Shown: positions 15,838 to 24,529 of the stretch, in pieces
Position numbering within the stretch: the stretch's first letter is position 1
Layout of the letters: each line of letters starts with the position of its first letter
From: Hyphomicrobiales bacterium
Lineage (GTDB): Bacteria > Pseudomonadota > Alphaproteobacteria > Rhizobiales > Rhizobiaceae
Reading direction: 5' to 3'
DNA length: 64,000 nt
NCBI GenBank assembly: GCA_900466575.1
Contig: UBMP01000017.1
Coordinates: 1 to 64,000 of the forward strand
Program-made: the position numbers and the translations under genes
Notes under the pieces: generated by a model
Database searches by the model: none
What the model was told of the DNA's origin: nothing
Seen by the model: the letters and a program-made list of their open reading frames with translations, nothing else

Positions 15838-16857
15838 TCACCCGTGCTCGATCACGATCTTCAGGGCATCCGGGCTGGCGCGCCAGTATGGAAAAGCAGC
15901 TTCGGCCTCATCGAAGGGAAAGGTCTTCGAAATCAGCAGATCGGCCGTGTCCCCGATCTTTTCCAGATGCGCGATCACGGCGCTGAAGTCTTCCATCGTG
16001 GCATTCCGGGAGCCCATGATATCAAGTTCCTTCAGATTGAAGAACTTGGTGTCGTAGGTCACCGGCGCTTTCGAATAACCGATATAGACGACCCTGCCGG
16101 CAAAGCAGGCGAGATCGATGGCCTGCACAAAGGTTTCGGGCAGACCGACAGCTTCCACGGCGACATCGACGCCATCGCCATTCGTCCATTCCGCCACCCG
16201 CGCCGCGACATCCTCGCTGCGGCCATTGACCGTGACGCTTGCACCGAAGCGGCGGGCGACCTCCAGCTTGTGTTCGCTCATGTCGATGGCGAGCACGTCC
16301 GCACCCTTGGCGACCGCGCCGATAAGCGCACCCATGCCGATCATGCCGCAGCCGATCACGGCGACCTTGTCACCCTTTTCGATGCGCCCGCGTGCCACCG
16401 CATGAAAACCAACCGAGAGCGGCTCGACCAAGGCAAGACGGTGAGGTGCGAGCGTGTCGTTCAGGATCAGCTTTTCCGCCGGCAGCACGATATCGTCGGC
16501 CAGTCCGCCATCCTGCTGGACGCCAAGCGTACGATTGTAGCGGCATGCGTTGAGACGACCCTTGCGGCAGGAACTGCAGGTTCCGCAGTTGGTATAGGGC
16601 ATGACGATGACACGTGCGCCGGGCTTCATGGCCGGGCTCACGCCCTCGCCAGCCTCGAGAATTTCCCCGCCGATCTCGTGGCCAGGAATGCGCGGCAGGG
16701 CGACGAGCGGATTAAGCCCGCGATAGGTGTTGAGGTCGCTGCCGCAGAGCCCGACATGGCGGACGCCGACGCGTACCTCGCCCGGCCCGAGCGGCTGGCT
16801 TTCGACCGTGCGGAAACGAGCCGTGTTCTCGGCCTCAATGGCAAGCGCTTTTCTCAT
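15838..16857 (-). CDS. Zinc-dependent alcohol dehydrogenase, L-galactonate 5-dehydrogenase-like
   Basis: This 339-residue medium-chain dehydrogenase has catalytic zinc ligands in GLCGSD and GHEIGGE, structural-zinc cysteines in CGTCSSCRKGRLNAC, and the NAD site GCGMIGMG. It resembles the sugar-acid dehydrogenases LgoD/IdnD. It is the last gene of the sugar operon, 10 bp after the tagaturonate reductase-like gene. In that context oxidation of L-galactonate to D-tagaturonate is the best fit. L-fuconate or L-idonate oxidation remain alternatives. Confidence 0.85.
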   Translation of the reverse strand: MRKALAIEAENTARFRTVESQPLGPGEVRVGVRHVGLCGSDLNTYRGLNPLVALPRIPGHEIGGEILEAGEGVSPAMKPGARVIVMPYTNCGTCSSCRKGRLNACRYNRTLGVQQDGGLADDIVLPAEKLILNDTLAPHRLALVEPLSVGFHAVARGRIEKGDKVAVIGCGMIGMGALIGAVAKGADVLAIDMSEHKLEVARRFGASVTVNGRSEDVAARVAEWTNGDGVDVAVEAVGLPETFVQAIDLACFAGRVVYIGYSKAPVTYDTKFFNLKELDIMGSRNATMEDFSAVIAHLEKIGDTADLLISKTFPFDEAEAAFPYWRASPDALKIVIEHG

Positions 16858-16867
16858 GGTCAGCTCC

Positions 16868-18010
16868 TTACGCTGTCTCTTCCAGCATCGCCGCGAGCCG
16901 CGGCTGGTTCAGGCCCAGTGACCGGCCCGCCTCGACCATGGGCCGGATGCGTCGATTGATCTTTTCGAGATGGTTGTTGGCGATGTCCGACAGCCGGTGC
17001 ACCAGGAAGGGGTTGAGGAAACGGTCCAGAACCTGCGCCATGTAGGGCACAGCCTCCTCCCCCAGGCCCCGCGCGGTCATCACCGGCAGAACCTCCTCGC
17101 GCCACACTGCCTCGAGATCGGCGCGCACTGCGCTATCGCCGAGAATTTCCCGCACGGTCTCCGTCGCCGGTCTTCCCTCTTTCCGCCACCGGTCCGCCAG
17201 GTAGGTATGGCCGAGATTGAGGATGTGAAGCTTCAGCGTTTCATAACGTTGAAGATCGGCAGTGACGACGATGGCGGGATGCTTGCAGGGCAGAACGAGC
17301 CCATCCTGCTCACCGATGGCCCAGAGCGCATAGGGCTCGGCAACAGCACCCACGGGTTCGATCGGTTCGGACACGATCCGGTCGACCAGACTGTTGGCAA
17401 AACGGCAATGTGTCTCGAGATAGACGAAAAACGTCTCCGGAAAGCTCCACTCTCGGCCGAGACCGATCACGAGTTCGCGCAGCCGCTCACCGTTCTTCTC
17501 GATCAGCTCACAGGGGAAGAGCGACACCGGTTGCTGCGGATTTGCTTCCGACCGCTCCAGCAGAAGTGCGGCGATCTTGGCCGGGAAGCTGCGCGGCGCA
17601 ACCGCCCGATCGGCGACGCTTTCTCGCGTGTCCGCCGGGTCTAGGACGAAGCCGCGATCGCCTGTATTGGACATGATGACACGGGCTGCCAGCGCAGCCT
17701 GGCGCACGGCCGGCCAGTCGCGGCCCGCGAACAGCGCCTTGCCGATGGCATTGCCCTGCAACTCTTCGTCCACGACCTTGCCATCGGCAAGACCGCGCAC
17801 GCGCACGGGGTAGCTCGCACCCGACGCCAGCGCCGCCACACGCTTTGCGCTCTCCTCGCTGCCGGTCGTCTGCACCAGCGTTATCTTGCCGAGCGCTTCA
17901 CCTTGGGCCAGCGCCTCAGAGATGAAGAGATCGGCATGCGCCAGCAGGAAGCGGCTGGTGCCGAACTGCAGGATCGGATTTTCGCCGCTGTCTTGAGAAG
18001 TGGACTGCAT
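16868..18010 (-). CDS. Mannitol dehydrogenase family, tagaturonate reductase (UxaB)-like
   Basis: This 380-residue protein starts at ATG 18010 (MQSTSQDSGENPILQFGTSRF); the frame is open to 18127 but that part overlaps the lactonase gene. The polyol-dehydrogenase fold is shown by ILQFGTSRFLLAHAD at the N-terminus, VIMSNTGDRGF, and the catalytic region LKLHILNLGHTYLAD. Length and sequence fit altronate oxidoreductases that reduce D-tagaturonate to D-altronate with NADH. It is short compared with E. coli UxaB (about 480 residues). It lies 22 bp after the lactonase stop. Confidence 0.8.
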   Translation of the reverse strand: MQSTSQDSGENPILQFGTSRFLLAHADLFISEALAQGEALGKITLVQTTGSEESAKRVAALASGASYPVRVRGLADGKVVDEELQGNAIGKALFAGRDWPAVRQAALAARVIMSNTGDRGFVLDPADTRESVADRAVAPRSFPAKIAALLLERSEANPQQPVSLFPCELIEKNGERLRELVIGLGREWSFPETFFVYLETHCRFANSLVDRIVSEPIEPVGAVAEPYALWAIGEQDGLVLPCKHPAIVVTADLQRYETLKLHILNLGHTYLADRWRKEGRPATETVREILGDSAVRADLEAVWREEVLPVMTARGLGEEAVPYMAQVLDRFLNPFLVHRLSDIANNHLEKINRRIRPMVEAGRSLGLNQPRLAAMLEETA

Positions 18011-18032
18011 GTTCGGGTTTCCTGTATCGGGC

Positions 18033-18857
18033 TCAATGACCCGGCTCGAGCCGGTAGAAGTCGATGGCATTGCCGCCAAAGACGGCGTCGTGATGGTGGG
18101 CCGGCACGATATCGAGGCACTGGTCAAGCCAGGTCCGGTAGTCGCTCACGAGCTTGACCACCGGCCAGTCGCTGCCCCAGATCGTCCGCGTCTCGCCGAA
18201 GAGTTCGAGGATCGTTTCGGCATAGGGGCGTACCGCTTCCGGCCGCTGGTCGCCGGCTTCGACGAGAAGACCGGAAAGCTTGCAGGAGACGTTCGGCAAA
18301 GCCGCAAGTGCTGCGAGCCGGTGCCGCCAAGCAACATATTTCCCTTCGGCGATCAGAGGCTTCGCGCCGTGATCGATTACGATCCGCAACTCCGGAAAGC
18401 GTTCGGCAAAGCGGGTCAGGGGCGCCATGTGGCGCGGGAGGATCAGGCCGTCAAAGGCGAGATCATGCTCGATCATGACAGCAACGGCAGGCACAAGCGC
18501 CGGATCGTCGATCCAGTCGGTCTCTTCGATGCCCTGAAGCATCGGCCGGATGCCTTTAAGCTTTTCATGCTTGGCGAGCATGGCGATCATCTCGGGCGCA
18601 TTCGCCGCCTTCATGTCCACCCAGCCGACGACGCCGAGAATGAAGTCATTCTTCGCGGCCAGATCGAGAAGAAAGAGCGTATCGTCCACCTCAGGCAATG
18701 ATTGCACGACAACCGTTCCATCCACACCCGCCGCTTTCAGGTGCGGCTCAAGATCTGGTGGCAGGAAGTCGTGGCGGATGGCGGCAAGCTCGGGCGGCGG
18801 CCATTGGCCTTGCCTGCGCTCCATCAGCCAGAAATGCTGGTGGGAATCGATCCGCAT
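18033..18857 (-). CDS. COG3618 amidohydrolase, sugar lactonase
   Basis: This 274-residue TIM-barrel amidohydrolase begins MRIDSHQHFW, giving the HxH metal-binding motif at residues 6-8, and ends with GSDWPV, carrying the catalytic aspartate. COG3618 members include L-fucono-1,5-lactonase and L-galactono-1,5-lactonase, which act on the direct products of aldose 1-dehydrogenases. Its start lies 2 bp after the stop of just such a dehydrogenase, which strongly supports lactonase function. 2-pyrone-dicarboxylate lactonases share the fold but do not fit the neighbours. Confidence 0.87.
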   Translation of the reverse strand: MRIDSHQHFWLMERRQGQWPPPELAAIRHDFLPPDLEPHLKAAGVDGTVVVQSLPEVDDTLFLLDLAAKNDFILGVVGWVDMKAANAPEMIAMLAKHEKLKGIRPMLQGIEETDWIDDPALVPAVAVMIEHDLAFDGLILPRHMAPLTRFAERFPELRIVIDHGAKPLIAEGKYVAWRHRLAALAALPNVSCKLSGLLVEAGDQRPEAVRPYAETILELFGETRTIWGSDWPVVKLVSDYRTWLDQCLDIVPAHHHDAVFGGNAIDFYRLEPGH

Positions 18858-18859
18858 GG

Positions 18860-19867
18860 TCAGGCCCCGTGCGGGAGGGGAACGCCCTCGCCCACCAGAC
18901 CGCGCGTGCGCAGTTCCGCCCAGAAGGCGGCGGGGATGGCTTCTTCAAACGATGAAACGTTGGACGAAATCTGCGACGCGTTGCGCGCGCCCGATACAAC
19001 GCTGACAACGGCCTTGTGGGCCATCGGAAACTGCATGGCTGCGGCCTGAAGGCTGACATTCATCTCGCGGCAGACAGCATCGAGCCGGCCCAGATGCGCA
19101 AGCACATCTTGCGGCGCATCCTGATAGTTGAATTTGCGGTTTCCGGCCAGCAGACCCGAATTGAAGACGCCGGCCGCAACGATGCCGACACCGGCGGCAG
19201 CGCATTCGTCCATGAAGGACAGGCTTTCCTGCTCCAGAAGCGTATAGCGCCCGGCCAGCATCGCGACGTCGATATCGAAAACCTGCATCGCGTCGCGGAT
19301 GACTTCGAATTCGTTGACACCGAGGCCAACGGCCTTCACCAGTCCCTGATCGCGCAATTCGCCCAGCGCCCTGAACCCGCCGCCGGTGAGTTGCGACCAG
19401 TAATGTCCGTTCTTCTCGCCATGGGTCACTGCGCCGATATCGTGGATGAAGAGAATGTCGGGCGCATAGATGCCCAGGCGCTGCCGGCTGTCCTCGAAGG
19501 AGCGCATGACGCCATCATAGGTGTAGTCATAGACCGGGCGGAAGGGGAGCGGTGCGGCATAGCTGTCTTCTTCAGCACCCACGGAGACATCCGGGTGCAT
19601 GACGCGTCCGACCTTGGTGCTGACGACGTAGTCCTGGCGGTCGAGATCGGTCAGCATGGTCCCGAGCCGGCGCTCGGAGCGGGTATATCCGTAAAAGGGA
19701 GCGGTATCGAAATAGCGGATGCCGGCGTCCCAGGCGGCCGAAAATGCGCCTCTGGCCTCGTCATATGGCGTGACCCGGTAGAGATTTCCCATCTGCGCAC
19801 AGCCGAGACCGATCACGGAGAGGCTCAGGTCGCGGCGTGGGAGTTTGCGCGTTTCGGACGCTTTCAT
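18860..19867 (-). CDS. Aldo/keto reductase, L-galactose/L-fucose (D-threo-aldose) 1-dehydrogenase
   Basis: This 335-residue AKR has DTAPFYGYTRSERRLG carrying the catalytic tyrosine, STKVGR with the lysine, and DILFIHDIG with the histidine. This is the D-threo-aldose 1-dehydrogenase subgroup, which oxidises L-fucose, L-galactose or D-arabinose to the lactone. I chose ATG 19867 because AAGGA lies 9 nt upstream; the ATG at 19873 is too close to it. The gene follows the binding protein by 58 bp and feeds the lactonase. Confidence 0.87.
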   Translation of the reverse strand: MKASETRKLPRRDLSLSVIGLGCAQMGNLYRVTPYDEARGAFSAAWDAGIRYFDTAPFYGYTRSERRLGTMLTDLDRQDYVVSTKVGRVMHPDVSVGAEEDSYAAPLPFRPVYDYTYDGVMRSFEDSRQRLGIYAPDILFIHDIGAVTHGEKNGHYWSQLTGGGFRALGELRDQGLVKAVGLGVNEFEVIRDAMQVFDIDVAMLAGRYTLLEQESLSFMDECAAAGVGIVAAGVFNSGLLAGNRKFNYQDAPQDVLAHLGRLDAVCREMNVSLQAAAMQFPMAHKAVVSVVSGARNASQISSNVSSFEEAIPAAFWAELRTRGLVGEGVPLPHGA

Positions 19868-19925
19868 CGACATCAATCCTTGGAAAGGGACGCGCGCCGG
19901 ACAAGCCCGGCGCGCGCAATGCTGC

Positions 19926-20870
19926 TTAGTAGAGAACGTTCTTGGCTTCCGGCTTGTCGATGTTTTCCTTGGTGACAAGGACGACGCCCGTATCGATGAA
20001 CTTCTCGACCTTTTCCTTCTTAAGGACCTTCTCGAGCGTTTCGATACCCTTTTCGCCCATCTGGTAGGAACTCTGAACGACGATGGCGTTCAGCGTGCCG
20101 TCCTTGACGAAGTTCTGCAGGTCGGTATTGCCGTCGAAGCCGATGGCGGTGATCTTGCCGGCCTTGCCAGCCTGCACGATCGCGCGGCCCATGCCGATGG
20201 CGGTCGGCTCATTGGCGCCGAAAATACCCTTCAGATCCGGATTGGCGGCGAGCACGTCGGTCGTCTGGTTCAGAGCCGTTGCCATCTGGGACTGCGAGTA
20301 ATACGGACCGACAACCTGAAGCTTGGAATGCGCCTTCAGATATTCGACGAAGCCGCCGACGCGACCGATTTCGGAACCGGCGCCTGCCACGTAGGACATG
20401 ACGGCGATCTTGCCTTCCTTGCCAACCTTGTCGATCATCGCCTGCGCGGCGAGTTCACCGGCCTTCTTGTTGTCCGTGGACAGGAAGGCCTGGTAGTACT
20501 TGTCGGAGTCCTTGGCGAGCATCGAGTCGATGATCACGACCGGGATATGCGCTTCCCAGGCCTTCTTGACGGCGGGAACCAGAGCGTCCGGATCGGACGG
20601 CGCGAGAACGATGCCCGCAACCTTACGGTTTACGGCGTTCTCGACCATGTTCACTTCGTCGGCAATGGCCGATTCCGAAGCCGGGCCCTGGAACGTCATC
20701 GTATATTTGCCGTTCGTCTTCTTGACTGCGGCGTCTGCGCCCTTCTGGACGTTCTGCCAGTAGTTCGAGTTGACTGTCTTGACGATGACGGCGATTTCAT
20801 CGGCGGCGCTGGCCGGTGCGACCCAGAACGCTGCTGCGCTTGCCAGAGCGGCGAACACTATCTTCTTCAT
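19926..20870 (-). CDS. Ribose-type ABC transporter sugar-binding protein
   Basis: This 314-residue periplasmic protein has a clear signal peptide (MKKIVFAALASAAAFWVAPASA) and a peripla_BP_4 fold, shown by AVIVKTVNSNYWQNVQKGAD, GIVLAPSDPDALVPAV, and ITAIGFDGNTDLQNFV. It captures a monosaccharide for the CUT2 importer encoded upstream. GGAGG is spaced 5 nt before ATG 20870. An in-frame TTG at 20969 would hide the signal peptide. A hexose such as L-galactose is inferred from downstream enzymes. Confidence 0.93.
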   Translation of the reverse strand: MKKIVFAALASAAAFWVAPASAADEIAVIVKTVNSNYWQNVQKGADAAVKKTNGKYTMTFQGPASESAIADEVNMVENAVNRKVAGIVLAPSDPDALVPAVKKAWEAHIPVVIIDSMLAKDSDKYYQAFLSTDNKKAGELAAQAMIDKVGKEGKIAVMSYVAGAGSEIGRVGGFVEYLKAHSKLQVVGPYYSQSQMATALNQTTDVLAANPDLKGIFGANEPTAIGMGRAIVQAGKAGKITAIGFDGNTDLQNFVKDGTLNAIVVQSSYQMGEKGIETLEKVLKKEKVEKFIDTGVVLVTKENIDKPEAKNVLY

Positions 20871-20965
20871 GTATTCCTCCCAGTAATACGTGGCTTGGTA
20901 GCCGGTTGCGACAAGGAGCGACCGTCGCCCCCTGATTGATCGGCCGATGGCCGAATTCCGAAATA

Positions 20966-21978
20966 TCAACGGCGGTTACGCAGCTGATCGATCCACACGG
21001 TTCCGAGAATGACGAAGCCGATAATGATTTGCTGGATGAAGGCAGAGACACCGTTCATGTTGAGACCGTTGCGCAGGATGCCGATGACGAAGGCGCCGAT
21101 CGCCGTCCCCGAGATCGTACCCACGCCACCGATCAGCGACGTTCCGCCGATGACCGCGCTGGCAATGGCGTCGAGTTCGTACATCACGCCTTCATTCGGC
21201 TGACCGGTCACGAGACGCGACATCAGCACGCAGCCCGTCAGGCCTGCCAGGGTTCCGGACAGAATGTAGGTGAAGATGGTGACGCGATCGACATTCACAC
21301 CGGAAAGGCGCGCCGCATCCGCATTCGAGCCGACCGCATAGATGTGGCGGCCGAGGACCGAGCGGTTCAGCATATAGGCAACGGCAATTGCGATCACGAC
21401 CATCAAAATGACCGGATAGGGAATCCCCGGAAACGTCACGTTCGGAAAGCCGTCGTCGCCGATGCTCTCGATCCGGAACAGCGCGCCGTTGCCGAGTTCG
21501 CCGAAGGCGTCACCCAGGCCCGACACCGCGCGGGCGCCGGTGATCTGGAGTGCAAAGCCGCGGGCAATCAGCATCATGCCGAGCGTCGCGATGAACGGCG
21601 GCAGCTTCAGCCGCGTGACGGCAATGCCGTTCAGCAGGCCGCAGATGGTTCCGGTCAGGATGCCGGCCAGCATGGCGAGCCAGATCGGGAAATTATAGTC
21701 CTTGACCGCGAGCGCCGCGACGACCCCGCTGAGCGCGAGCACCGACCCGACCGAGAGGTCAATACCGCCCGTGATGATGACGCAGGTCGCGCCGATGCCC
21801 AGAAGACCGATGGACGTGACCTGCAAGGCGATGGTCATTGCATTGTCGATGCTGAAAAACGCATTGCTCGTCAGCGAGAAGACGGCAGTCAGCGCAACAA
21901 GGCTGCCGAGCGCGGCAAATTTCTGCACCAGATCCTTCTGGCGGTCGCTCATGCGGGAGGATATTTTCCCGGTCTCAC

Positions 21979-21982
<4 letters not shown>
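20966..21982 (-). CDS. Ribose-type ABC transporter permease
   Basis: This 338-residue RbsC-family permease has 8-10 hydrophobic helices and the conserved segments TGGIDLSVGS, LPPFIATLGMM and GGTSLIGGVGTISGT. Its ATG at 21982 overlaps the ATPase stop in an ATGA arrangement, indicating translational coupling. The upstream in-frame extension to 22267 runs through the ATPase gene and is not real. It forms the membrane channel of the sugar importer. Confidence 0.93.
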
Positions 21983-23556
<1,574 letters not shown>

Positions 23557-23634
23557 ATTTCCTCTCAAACCGTTCTGCGTCAGACGCAGTTTCCTCACGG
23601 CCTCATGACAGGAAGAAGTAACGACCCTACCGAA

Positions 23635-23775
23635 ATTGGTCAAGCCAATTTTCAGAGAAAAGGCTTTCCAGAACCGAAGATAATGTTCAAAACCCTGCTA
23701 AAGGCCGATTTTTTAAGAGATAAAACTTTTTGCTCTCATGGGCGCTTGACTAAACAAGACATTGGCTTGACCAAT
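23635..23775. promoter_or_regulatory. Two mirror-image FadR/GntR operators flanking the divergent promoters
   Basis: ATTGGTCAAGCCAAT (23635-23649) and ATTGGCTTGACCAAT (23761-23775) are exact reverse complements, with centres 126 bp apart (12 helical turns at 10.5 bp). On the minus strand TTGACC inside the first site is a plausible -35, with TACTTC 17 bp on as -10 for the sugar operon. A TTGACT (23746-23751) just before the second site may serve the regulator. The dyad ATTGG...CCAAT fits the short palindromes bound by FCD-type GntR proteins. Confidence 0.75.
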
Positions 23776-23797
23776 ATGAAAATGGGGAGGATGCGAG

Positions 23798-24529
23798 ATG
23801 AGCAAGATTGAAGAGCCGCGGCGGCTTTACCAGCAGGTCGCAGACAAGATCAGATTGTCGATCGGTGCGAAGGGCCTGAAGAACGGCGCGCGCCTGCCGA
23901 GCGAGCGTGATCTTGCCCAGGAACTCGGCGTTTCGAGACCCTCCTTGCGCGAGGCTCTGATCGCGCTGGAAATCGAGGGGACTGTCGAAATCCGTGGCGG
24001 TTCCGGCATCTACCTGACGGCCGATGCTCCGAAAAATACGCAAACATCCTCGATTTACGGGGAAAGCCCCTCGGAATTGATGCAAGCCCGTTCAATGGTG
24101 GAGGGGAGTGCCGTGCTGGTCGCCGCCGGCAGGATTACCGAGGAGGCTCTGGCCGATTTGCAGCGGATTTTGTCGGAGATGGCGGAGGCCATCGCGGCCG
24201 GCAACGTCCCGCTCGAGCAGGACAAGGCCTTTCACCTGCGCATCGCCAGCGAAACCGGCAACTCGGTCATCGAAAAAATCATCGCCGGTCTTTTCGAAGA
24301 GCGTCACAACCCCATTGCCAAGCGCCTTCAGGACCGCTTCGGCGGCGGGAAATCCTGGGCGCTTGCCCTGCAGGAGCATCAGGCCATCTTCGATGCACTC
24401 AGTGCCCGCGATCCGCTGTTGGCGCAGGCCGAGATGCATCGCCATCTTGACGCTTCCCGGCGGCGCTGGCTGGAGACCAAGGCTCTCGATGGCCGCGCGG
24501 CAGCAAAATCACCGCCAAACTTTTCCTGA
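23798..24529 (+). CDS. FadR/GntR family regulator (FCD domain) of the sugar operon
   Basis: This 243-residue regulator has an N-terminal winged helix (LYQQVADKIRLSI, LPSERDLAQELGVSRPSLREAL, IRGGSGIYL) and a C-terminal FCD domain with the metal-ligand histidines in DKAFHLRIA, EHQAIFDAL and MHRHLD. It is divergent from the sugar operon, and two mirror-image operator palindromes lie between them. Release by a sugar-acid intermediate such as L-galactonate is the likely induction mechanism, by analogy with ExuR/UxuR-type FCD proteins. Confidence 0.9.
   Translation: MSKIEEPRRLYQQVADKIRLSIGAKGLKNGARLPSERDLAQELGVSRPSLREALIALEIEGTVEIRGGSGIYLTADAPKNTQTSSIYGESPSELMQARSMVEGSAVLVAAGRITEEALADLQRILSEMAEAIAAGNVPLEQDKAFHLRIASETGNSVIEKIIAGLFEERHNPIAKRLQDRFGGGKSWALALQEHQAIFDALSARDPLLAQAEMHRHLDASRRRWLETKALDGRAAAKSPPNFS

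What the first reader, a model, noticed from the sequence alone, without database searches (positions are those of the whole stretch)
15838..24529. Self-contained L-galactose catabolic operon with importer and regulator
Seven minus-strand genes encode a ribose-type importer, a D-threo-aldose 1-dehydrogenase, a COG3618 lactonase, an LgoD-like zinc dehydrogenase and a UxaB-like reductase. Together they give exactly the steps L-galactose, lactone, L-galactonate, D-tagaturonate, D-altronate. L-fucose pathways need no tagaturonate reductase, so its presence points to L-galactose. Seeing the sequence supports the families; the substrate is inference from pathway logic (known from work on Bacteroides L-galactose metabolism and E. 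coli L-galactonate use).
Basis: partly seen in the sequence, partly recalled or inferred. Interest (0 to 1): 0.75.

Follow-up and report, generated by a model that had tools for sequence, protein, structure and literature searches.

The report
Operon for eating L-galactose
A soil-type bacterium carries a set of genes that most likely imports the rare plant sugar L-galactose and turns it into a common sugar acid; the pathway is already known from other bacteria, but this version lacks its last steps and may borrow them from a second gene cluster used for a sister sugar.

Summary
The genes are real and at the stated place: seven minus-strand genes (ribose-type ABC importer, L-galactose/L-fucose-type aldo-keto reductase, COG3618 lactonase, short UxaB-like reductase, zinc dehydrogenase) plus a divergent ExuR-like regulator, with two conserved palindromes between regulator and importer. 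L-galactose -> L-galactonate -> D-tagaturonate -> D-altronate is the best reading (about 0.7), from gene context, not assay.

'Self-contained' is wrong. The genome's only altronate-dehydratase-family gene lies on another contig, in a cluster (SDR, FAH hydrolase, FucU, regulator) that in three of four sister species also has its own importer and dehydrogenase. At these two loci each of five species keeps an importer and a dehydrogenase in at least one: the loci may share one entry for L-galactose and L-fucose.

The zinc dehydrogenase is not in the LgoD clade; its clade is mostly linked to TRAP acid importers. The reductase belongs to a ~380-residue family distinct from full-length UxaB.

The pathway is published (E. 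coli, Bacteroides, Luteolibacter; mixed L-fucose/L-galactonate loci in Halomonas; Acidovorax, partly from recall). New member of a known kind, found in Rhizobiales, Burkholderiales and Pseudomonas. Against: five Pseudomonas loci hold the same two dehydrogenases with mannonate dehydratase, so an L-gulonate route is not excluded.

The parts
15838..16857 (-). Zinc-dependent dehydrogenase, proposed L-galactonate 5-dehydrogenase (to D-tagaturonate)
   Evidence: PF08240/PF00107; no NCBIfam equivalog passed; 73% to the enzyme of locus L093 (TRAP type), 34% to E. coli LgoD and to the Agrobacterium operon enzyme; in a 13-leaf clade, support 1.0
16868..18010 (-). Short mannitol-dehydrogenase-family reductase, proposed D-tagaturonate reductase (to D-altronate)
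   Evidence: Best NCBIfam tagaturonate reductase 196.8 bits, fructuronate reductase 27.3; K260, N265, H268 invariant in 11 family members, same K-x4-N-x2-H pattern in E. coli UxaB
18033..18857 (-). COG3618 amidohydrolase, proposed L-galactono/L-fucono-lactonase
   Evidence: Best NCBIfam L-fucono-1,5-lactonase 195.1 bits, under cut-off 400; best PDB match 4dlf, E 3e-37, with the DSHQHF and GSDWPV segments aligned
18860..19867 (-). Aldo-keto reductase, proposed L-galactose (L-fucose, D-arabinose) 1-dehydrogenase
   Evidence: The five best PDB matches are named L-galactose dehydrogenase, E 1e-25 to 5e-22; the FDT/FYG, STK-GR and HDI segments align
19926..20870 (-). CUT2 sugar-binding protein
   Evidence: 84% to 4wut, Agrobacterium vitis Avi_5133; PF13407
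20966..21982 (-). CUT2 permease
   Evidence: PF02653
21979..23556 (-). CUT2 ATPase with two ABC domains
   Evidence: PF00005, two stretches
23636..23648 (.). Operator-like palindrome TTGGTCAAGCCAA, nearer the importer gene
   Evidence: Two copies of the motif in 5 of 5 same-genus loci; 4 matches of TTGGTCRRGCCAA in the whole genome, 2 of them here
23762..23774 (.). Second operator-like palindrome, reverse orientation, nearer the regulator gene
   Evidence: Same as above; start-to-start spacing 126-129 bp in the five loci
23798..24529 (+). GntR/FCD regulator, divergently transcribed
   Evidence: PF00392 + PF07729; best NCBIfam ExuR 122.9 bits, under cut-off 396

Best explanation
The operon is the upper half of an oxidative L-galactose pathway. 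The CUT2 ABC transporter imports the sugar; the aldo-keto reductase oxidises it to the lactone; the COG3618 enzyme opens it to L-galactonate; the zinc dehydrogenase oxidises C5 to D-tagaturonate; the short reductase reduces C5 with opposite stereochemistry to D-altronate. The GntR/FCD protein represses both directions from two palindromic operators. D-altronate is then dehydrated by the single UxaA-family enzyme encoded on another contig (C28), and the product is finished either by the SDR and FAH hydrolase beside it or by KDG kinase and aldolase. Importer and aldose dehydrogenase probably also take L-fucose (and D-arabinose), whose acid is handled by the C28 cluster and perhaps a third cluster on C44. 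Shown here: gene families, order, conservation, conserved palindromes, location of the dehydratase, co-occurrence. Inferred: every substrate and reaction, repression, and sharing of the entry steps.
For: Families. Of 80 named loci encoding the short reductase (a capped list), 78 carry a zinc dehydrogenase of one of two clades and 49 a UxaA-family dehydratase within the locus, three of these 49 in a split form; UxaC, the galacturonate isomerase, is in 0 of 80. In 33 of 33 order-level genomes with the short family a UxaA-family gene is present, against 264 of 397 overall (hypergeometric 7e-7, not corrected for relatedness or genome size). In the genus, reductase and UxaA family share the same 5 of 6 genomes. 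The own C28 dehydratase is 55-61% identical to three operon-linked ones. Acid-importer loci lack a close aldose dehydrogenase and the lactonase (0 of 22). A Paraburkholderia mimosarum COG0667 enzyme oxidises D-arabinose, L-fucose and L-galactose (PMC6336799, passage). Palindromes in 5 of 5 genus loci.
Against: No assay. Five of 80 loci, all Pseudomonas, hold UxuA (mannonate dehydratase) and no UxaA. 31 of 80 loci show no UxaA within reach (some are short contigs); of 33 order-level loci fetched only 4 do. 14 of 44 sugar-importer loci lack a close aldo-keto reductase and 21 a close lactonase (cut at 45% and 40% identity, so the 32-33% lactonase-like genes of four Ralstonia-type loci are not counted). 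The C28 dehydratase sits in an L-fucose- or D-arabinose-type cluster, so its acting on D-altronate is an assumption; it scores 392 bits against galactarate dehydratase (cut-off 731) and is as close to E. coli GarD (39%) as to UxaA (37%). The operator motif was not found at C28. No KDG kinase passed the cut-off. I recall, from no call, that 4wut was solved with D-fucose, which does not match L-galactose.
Confidence: 0.7

Rival explanations
1. L-gulose/L-gulonate operon: the zinc dehydrogenase makes D-fructuronate and the short reductase D-mannonate, finished by UxuA (present on contig C44).
For: UxuA lies in the same locus as the enzyme pair in 5 of 80 loci; the genome has UxuA; the title of a paper on E. 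coli LgoD (YjjN) names L-gulonate beside L-galactonate (reference list seen).
Against: The reductase scores 196.8 bits to tagaturonate and 27.3 to fructuronate reductase; UxaA family in 49 of 80 loci against UxuA in 5; L-fuconate genes, whose sugar shares the L-galacto configuration, in 16 of 80; in this genome UxuA lies one gene away from another mannitol-dehydrogenase-family gene of 486 residues.
Confidence: 0.1
2. Primarily an L-fucose or D-arabinose operon; L-galactose is a minor side substrate.
For: Best lactonase model is L-fucono-1,5-lactonase; fuconate-branch genes in 16 of 80 related loci; a homologous enzyme takes L-fucose and D-arabinose.
Against: No fuconate dehydratase, SDR or FAH hydrolase in the window operon; the published L-fuconate routes use neither a C5 dehydrogenase nor a tagaturonate-type reductase (PMC11199699, passage).
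Confidence: 0.12
3. L-glucose (or mixed L-glucose/L-galactose) pathway as in Luteolibacter: the same enzymes take L-glucose and L-gluconate with a separate C4 epimerase.
For: LguA and LguD act on both sugars (PMC12632266, sections 18 and 26).
Against: No epimerase gene in the operon; LguA prefers L-galactose 40-fold. An epimerase elsewhere in the genome was not sought.
Confidence: 0.03

Closest known systems
Bacterial L-galactose pathway by C5 epimerisation of L-galactonate and D-altronate dehydratase (Acidovorax avenae; Watanabe 2019, Mol. Microbiol. 112:147; only the title seen, in reference lists; abstract recalled)
   Same: Same reaction sequence as recalled; altronate-dehydratase family shared with L-fucose and D-arabinose routes
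   Different: Window operon has a CUT2 importer, a lactonase and a zinc dehydrogenase of another clade than most operons; dehydratase unlinked. The A. avenae locus itself was not examined.
L-fucose/L-fuconate/L-galactonate loci of Halomonas and Chromohalobacter (PMC5507952, section 12 read)
   Same: lgoD-, uxaA- and uxaB/uxaF-type genes co-located with L-fucose genes; shared use proposed there
   Different: TRAP importer for the acids; here L-fucose-type genes are on other contigs
Luteolibacter lguABCDEF (PMC12632266: abstract, sections 18 and 26, passages)
   Same: Aldo-keto reductase type L-galactose dehydrogenase, L-galactonate dehydrogenase, NADPH tagaturonate reductase, altronate dehydratase
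   Different: No importer or lactonase gene named in the cluster legend; dehydratase and aldolase inside the cluster; regulator annotated Btr
Bacteroides vulgatus BVU_0219/BVU_0222 L-galactose genes (Hobbs 2014, not held; as discussed in PMC12632266)
   Same: L-galactose dehydrogenase then L-galactonate dehydrogenase
   Different: Sequences not compared here
E. coli LgoD/UxaB/UxaA L-galactonate route (records read)
   Same: Chemistry from L-galactonate on
   Different: No sugar import or aldose oxidation (known route); 34% and 28% identity for LgoD and UxaB

Membership tests
Oxidative L-galactose pathway | Aldose 1-dehydrogenase of the L-galactose/L-fucose dehydrogenase type | tested here: met
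   Five best PDB matches named L-galactose dehydrogenase; family level only
Oxidative L-galactose pathway | L-galactonate 5-dehydrogenase | tested here: inconclusive
   Zinc dehydrogenase present in 78 of 80 loci, but the window's is not in the LgoD-containing clade; activity not testable
Oxidative L-galactose pathway | Tagaturonate reductase | tested here: inconclusive
   Best model is tagaturonate reductase, below its cut-off; K/N/H pattern kept
Oxidative L-galactose pathway | Altronate dehydratase encoded in the same genome | tested here: inconclusive
   One family member, unlinked; as close to E. coli GarD as to UxaA
Oxidative L-galactose pathway | Growth on L-galactose, induction by it | not testable with these tools
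   No experiment
LgoD (E. coli L-galactonate oxidoreductase) orthologs | Shares the LgoD branch | tested here: not met
   Window clade of 13 leaves excludes LgoD; LgoD falls with the other 69 leaves, support 0.84, midpoint root
UxaB sensu stricto | Full length (483 residues in E. coli) and NCBIfam cut-off | tested here: not met
   380 residues, 196.8 bits against 359; E-values jump from 3e-86 to 6e-29 between the short family and the rest
Self-contained operon | All steps to central metabolism in the operon | tested here: not met
   No dehydratase, kinase or aldolase among the eight genes of 15838-24529

The most novel reading that the evidence does not exclude
Two unlinked loci form one shared catabolic unit in this genus: the window operon (L-galactose branch) and the C28 UxaA-SDR-FAH-FucU cluster (L-fucose/D-arabinose branch) once each had importer and aldose dehydrogenase, and species lose one copy or the other but never both. 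A window-type zinc dehydrogenase, shared with TRAP acid-import operons, replaced the usual one, and altronate is dehydrated by the promiscuous enzyme of the sister-sugar cluster rather than by a dedicated UxaA.
Probability: 0.4. Interest if true: 0.45.

Novelty: new member of a known kind. Interest (0 to 1): 0.3.

Why it matters
The short reductase family, called 'mannitol dehydrogenase family protein' or 'D-mannonate oxidoreductase' in plasmid records, would get a likely specific role, and so would a CUT2 importer found in many Rhizobiales and Burkholderiales. The two-locus pattern makes pathway sharing between L-fucose and L-galactose testable by deletions. It does not change the known chemistry.

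Tried and rejected
'Self-contained': rejected. LgoD orthology of the zinc dehydrogenase: rejected. uxaA sharing the operator: in locus L006 no site within 2 mismatches; the other two genome matches of the motif lie inside an SDR gene on C44 and 12 bp after an ORF on C37, and the reversed control also gave 2 matches. Importer ligand from the PDB: title cut before the ligand; paper searches for the entry codes and ligands gave nothing on them. KDG kinase: best own match 256 bits, under the 400 cut-off, so not settled; KDPG aldolase family has 2 members. Single-sequence fold of the binding protein was poor (pLDDT 41) and was replaced by an alignment fold (88). My first gene caller mis-called GC-rich loci and was replaced by a codon-usage version; the locus counts use tblastn instead. 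Its classes leave 14 of 80 loci as 'other'; these were not used in the 44-against-22 comparison. Five of the 22 acid-type loci are short contigs (L097, L109, L145, L149, L151; lengths).
Full report
OBSERVATION. The window contains, at 15838-24529, seven minus-strand genes and one divergent plus-strand gene. Pfam and NCBIfam give a CUT2-type importer (binding protein PF13407, permease PF02653, double ATPase), an aldo-keto reductase, an Amidohydro_2 protein whose best NCBIfam model is L-fucono-1,5-lactonase (195.1 bits, cut-off 400), a mannitol-dehydrogenase-family protein whose best model is tagaturonate reductase (196.8 bits, cut-off 359; fructuronate reductase 27.3), a zinc dehydrogenase that passes no cut-off among the 25 best models shown, and a GntR/FCD regulator nearest ExuR (122.9 bits, cut-off 396). 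Against PDB sequences the five best matches of the aldo-keto reductase are named L-galactose dehydrogenase (that they are mostly from plants is recalled); the lactonase matches 4dlf (that this is a Burkholderia L-fucono-lactonase structure is recalled); the binding protein matches 4wut, Agrobacterium vitis Avi_5133, at 84%.

REGULATION. The 241 bp between regulator and importer hold two copies of TTGGTCAAGCCAA in opposite orientation, at 23636 and 23762. The five genus genomes that have the locus each keep two copies of TTGGTCRRGCCAA in the corresponding stretch, 126-129 bp apart. The motif occurs four times in the 5.14 Mb genome, two of them here; the reversed control occurs twice. It was not found in the locus of the unlinked dehydratase, nor, as TTGG-N5-CCAA, in L051, the best match outside the genus in the order search. 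Repression by the neighbouring GntR protein is inference.

THE REDUCTASE FAMILY. In 397 genomes of the order, 33 genomes (own included) carry 34 matches at E 3e-86 or better, 43-63% identical apart from the own copy; the next match is at 6e-29. The family is about 380 residues (median 377 in 76 called genes, range 247-396, some calls partial) against 483 in E. coli UxaB, with K260, N265 and H268 invariant in 11 members and the same pattern in UxaB; that these are the catalytic residues is recalled. Plasmid records name it 'mannitol dehydrogenase family protein' or 'D-mannonate oxidoreductase' where annotated.

CONTEXT IN 80 NAMED LOCI. By tblastn with identity cut-offs: zinc dehydrogenase in 78 of 80; UxaA family in 49 of 80 (three of them split into two genes, L108, L121, L155); UxuA in 5 of 80, all Pseudomonas, on the opposite strand; UxaC in 0 of 80. 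Importer class: CUT2 44, TRAP 9, polar-type ABC 8, MFS 5, other 14. A close aldo-keto reductase (45% or more) is in 30 of 44 CUT2 loci and 0 of 22 TRAP/polar/MFS loci (L089 has one of 36-40% about 9.6 kb away); lactonase (40% or more) 23 of 44 and 0 of 22; UxaA 26 of 44 and 16 of 22 (Fisher 2e-8, 6e-6, 0.4; the loci are related, so these are descriptive). This is what an L-galactose pathway predicts: when the acid is imported, sugar oxidation and lactone opening are not needed. That TRAP, polar-type and MFS systems here carry the acid is inference. The converse is imperfect: 14 of 44 sugar-importer loci have no close aldo-keto reductase nearby. 21 of 80 loci hold aldo-keto reductase, lactonase, reductase, UxaA and binding protein together (19 with an unsplit UxaA). 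16 of 80 hold L-fuconate-branch genes (enolase-family dehydratase, or SDR plus FAH hydrolase); seven Agrobacterium/Rhizobium loci (L077-L080, L082, L084, L086) run UxaA, regulator, importer, aldo-keto reductase, lactonase, zinc dehydrogenase, reductase, RhaM-type mutarotase, enolase. Mixed L-fucose/L-galactose loci are therefore common in this set.

ZINC DEHYDROGENASE. The usual operon enzyme is 31-38% identical to the window's; that of the Brucella/Ochrobactrum/Falsochrobactrum/Phyllobacterium loci is 72-75%, and that of the sister species L076 94%. In a FastTree of 83 sequences the window falls in a 13-leaf clade (support 1.0) without LgoD; LgoD lies with the other 69 (support 0.84; midpoint rooting). 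Of the 12 other leaves of the window clade 8 come from loci with a TRAP importer; L076, L102, L105 and L106 do not show one. So two clades of zinc dehydrogenase occupy the same place, a likely non-orthologous replacement.

DOWNSTREAM AND THE SECOND LOCUS. The genome has one UxaA/GarD-family gene, on contig C28, and UxuA on C44, one gene from a 486-residue mannitol-dehydrogenase-family gene. The C28 protein is 55-61% identical to three operon-linked UxaA-family proteins, 39% to E. coli GarD and 37% to UxaA. C28 reads FAH hydrolase, SDR, UxaA-family, divergent GntR/FCD, a broken aldo-keto reductase, FucU-family protein, between rep genes. In three sister species (G398, G399, G401) the same locus also has a CUT2 importer between hydrolase and SDR, and an intact aldo-keto reductase after the regulator; in G397 the importer is missing but the aldo-keto reductase is intact. 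Inventory of the two loci: importer in the window-type operon: window genome, G397, G399; in the C28-type locus: G398, G399, G401. Aldo-keto reductase in the window-type operon: window genome, G397, G399; in the C28-type locus: G397, G398, G399, G401. At these two loci no species of the five lacks either function; the rest of their genomes was not searched for further importers or dehydrogenases (the window genome has a 40% identical aldo-keto reductase on C44). G400 has neither the short reductase nor the UxaA family. Five species are too few for a test. The two importers are 34% (binding protein), 43% (permease) and 52% (ATPase) identical, so they are not recent duplicates; shared specificity, and loss rather than gain, are inference. 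Across the order, all 33 genomes with the short family have a UxaA-family gene, against 264 of 397 overall (matched by eye; 7e-7; large genomes tend to have both). Own KDPG aldolase family: 2 members; no KDG kinase over the cut-off. A route through SDR and FAH to pyruvate and glycerate ('Route III') is my recollection of the Watanabe abstract.

A THIRD CLUSTER on C44 has a solute-binding protein of the SBP_bac_1 family, an enolase-family dehydratase nearest L-talarate/galactarate dehydratase (under its cut-off), RhaM (76%), SDR (79%), FAH (78%) and a short leftover (about 50 residues) of the enolase gene found in Agrobacterium: possibly the L-fucose-type branch.

LITERATURE. Ten full-text searches found the pathway in print. 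PMC12632266 (abstract, sections 18 and 26, passages): Luteolibacter L-glucose/L-galactose pathway with the same enzyme types, citing Bacteroides vulgatus. PMC6336799 (passages): an Acidovorax avenae UxaA-family gene, there called an L-galactonate dehydratase in '(unidentified) L-galactose metabolism', and a Paraburkholderia mimosarum COG0667 enzyme acting on D-arabinose, L-fucose and L-galactose. PMC5507952 (section 12, passages): L-fucose/L-fuconate/L-galactonate loci in Halomonas, with a non-orthologous 'UxaF' (whether this is the short family I could not check) and a TRAP system proposed for both acids. PMC13406643, PMC11199699, PMC12370193, PMC9007349: passages only. Watanabe 2019 Mol. Microbiol.: title only; its abstract, as I recall it, describes C5 epimerisation of L-galactonate by two dehydrogenases to D-altronate. 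In the listings of those searches I noticed no paper on a rhizobial version or on the two-locus pattern; I did not read the listed papers for it, and subscription papers are not covered.

VERDICT. Real operon, likely L-galactose (0.7), not self-contained, known pathway: new member of a known kind, interest 0.3.

Noticed in passing
L006 (own contig C28:284000-302000), 3190-14337: The UxaA-SDR-FAH-FucU cluster lies between replication/partition genes (repC on one side, repA-repB on the other, with a second RepB-like match upstream of repC), and repC, repA and repB matches flank it in all five genus genomes that have it.
   Followed up: partly
L006, 10480-11470: Aldo-keto reductase of the C28 locus is broken in the window genome (stops in all three frames printed) but full length in four sister species.
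   Followed up: partly
L175 and L177 (sister species G401, G398): The operon survives as lactonase, reductase and zinc dehydrogenase followed by a 1-phosphofructokinase-type kinase and, in L076, a PLP decarboxylase, without importer or aldose dehydrogenase.
   Followed up: partly
L087, L088, L089, L091, L100 (Pseudomonas): The same dehydrogenase pair shares its locus with UxuA and a galactonate-type MFS transporter (below its cut-off): possibly an L-gulonate version of the module.
   Followed up: partly
L108, L121, L155 (Janthinobacterium, Pseudoduganella): UxaA-family dehydratase appears split into a small (about 97-111 residues) and a large gene (407 in L108) near lactonase, mutarotase, SDR and FAH; resembles the heteromeric L-fuconate dehydratase mentioned in PMC6336799.
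   Followed up: no
L093, 5357-6331: TRAP binding protein of the acid-type locus matches solved structure 4ovt almost end to end (676 bits); I recall, from no call, that it holds L-fuconate.
   Followed up: no
own contig C44, 63846-63994: Short leftover of an enolase-family dehydratase beside the FAH gene, in a cluster with a different, complete enolase-family gene.
   Followed up: partly
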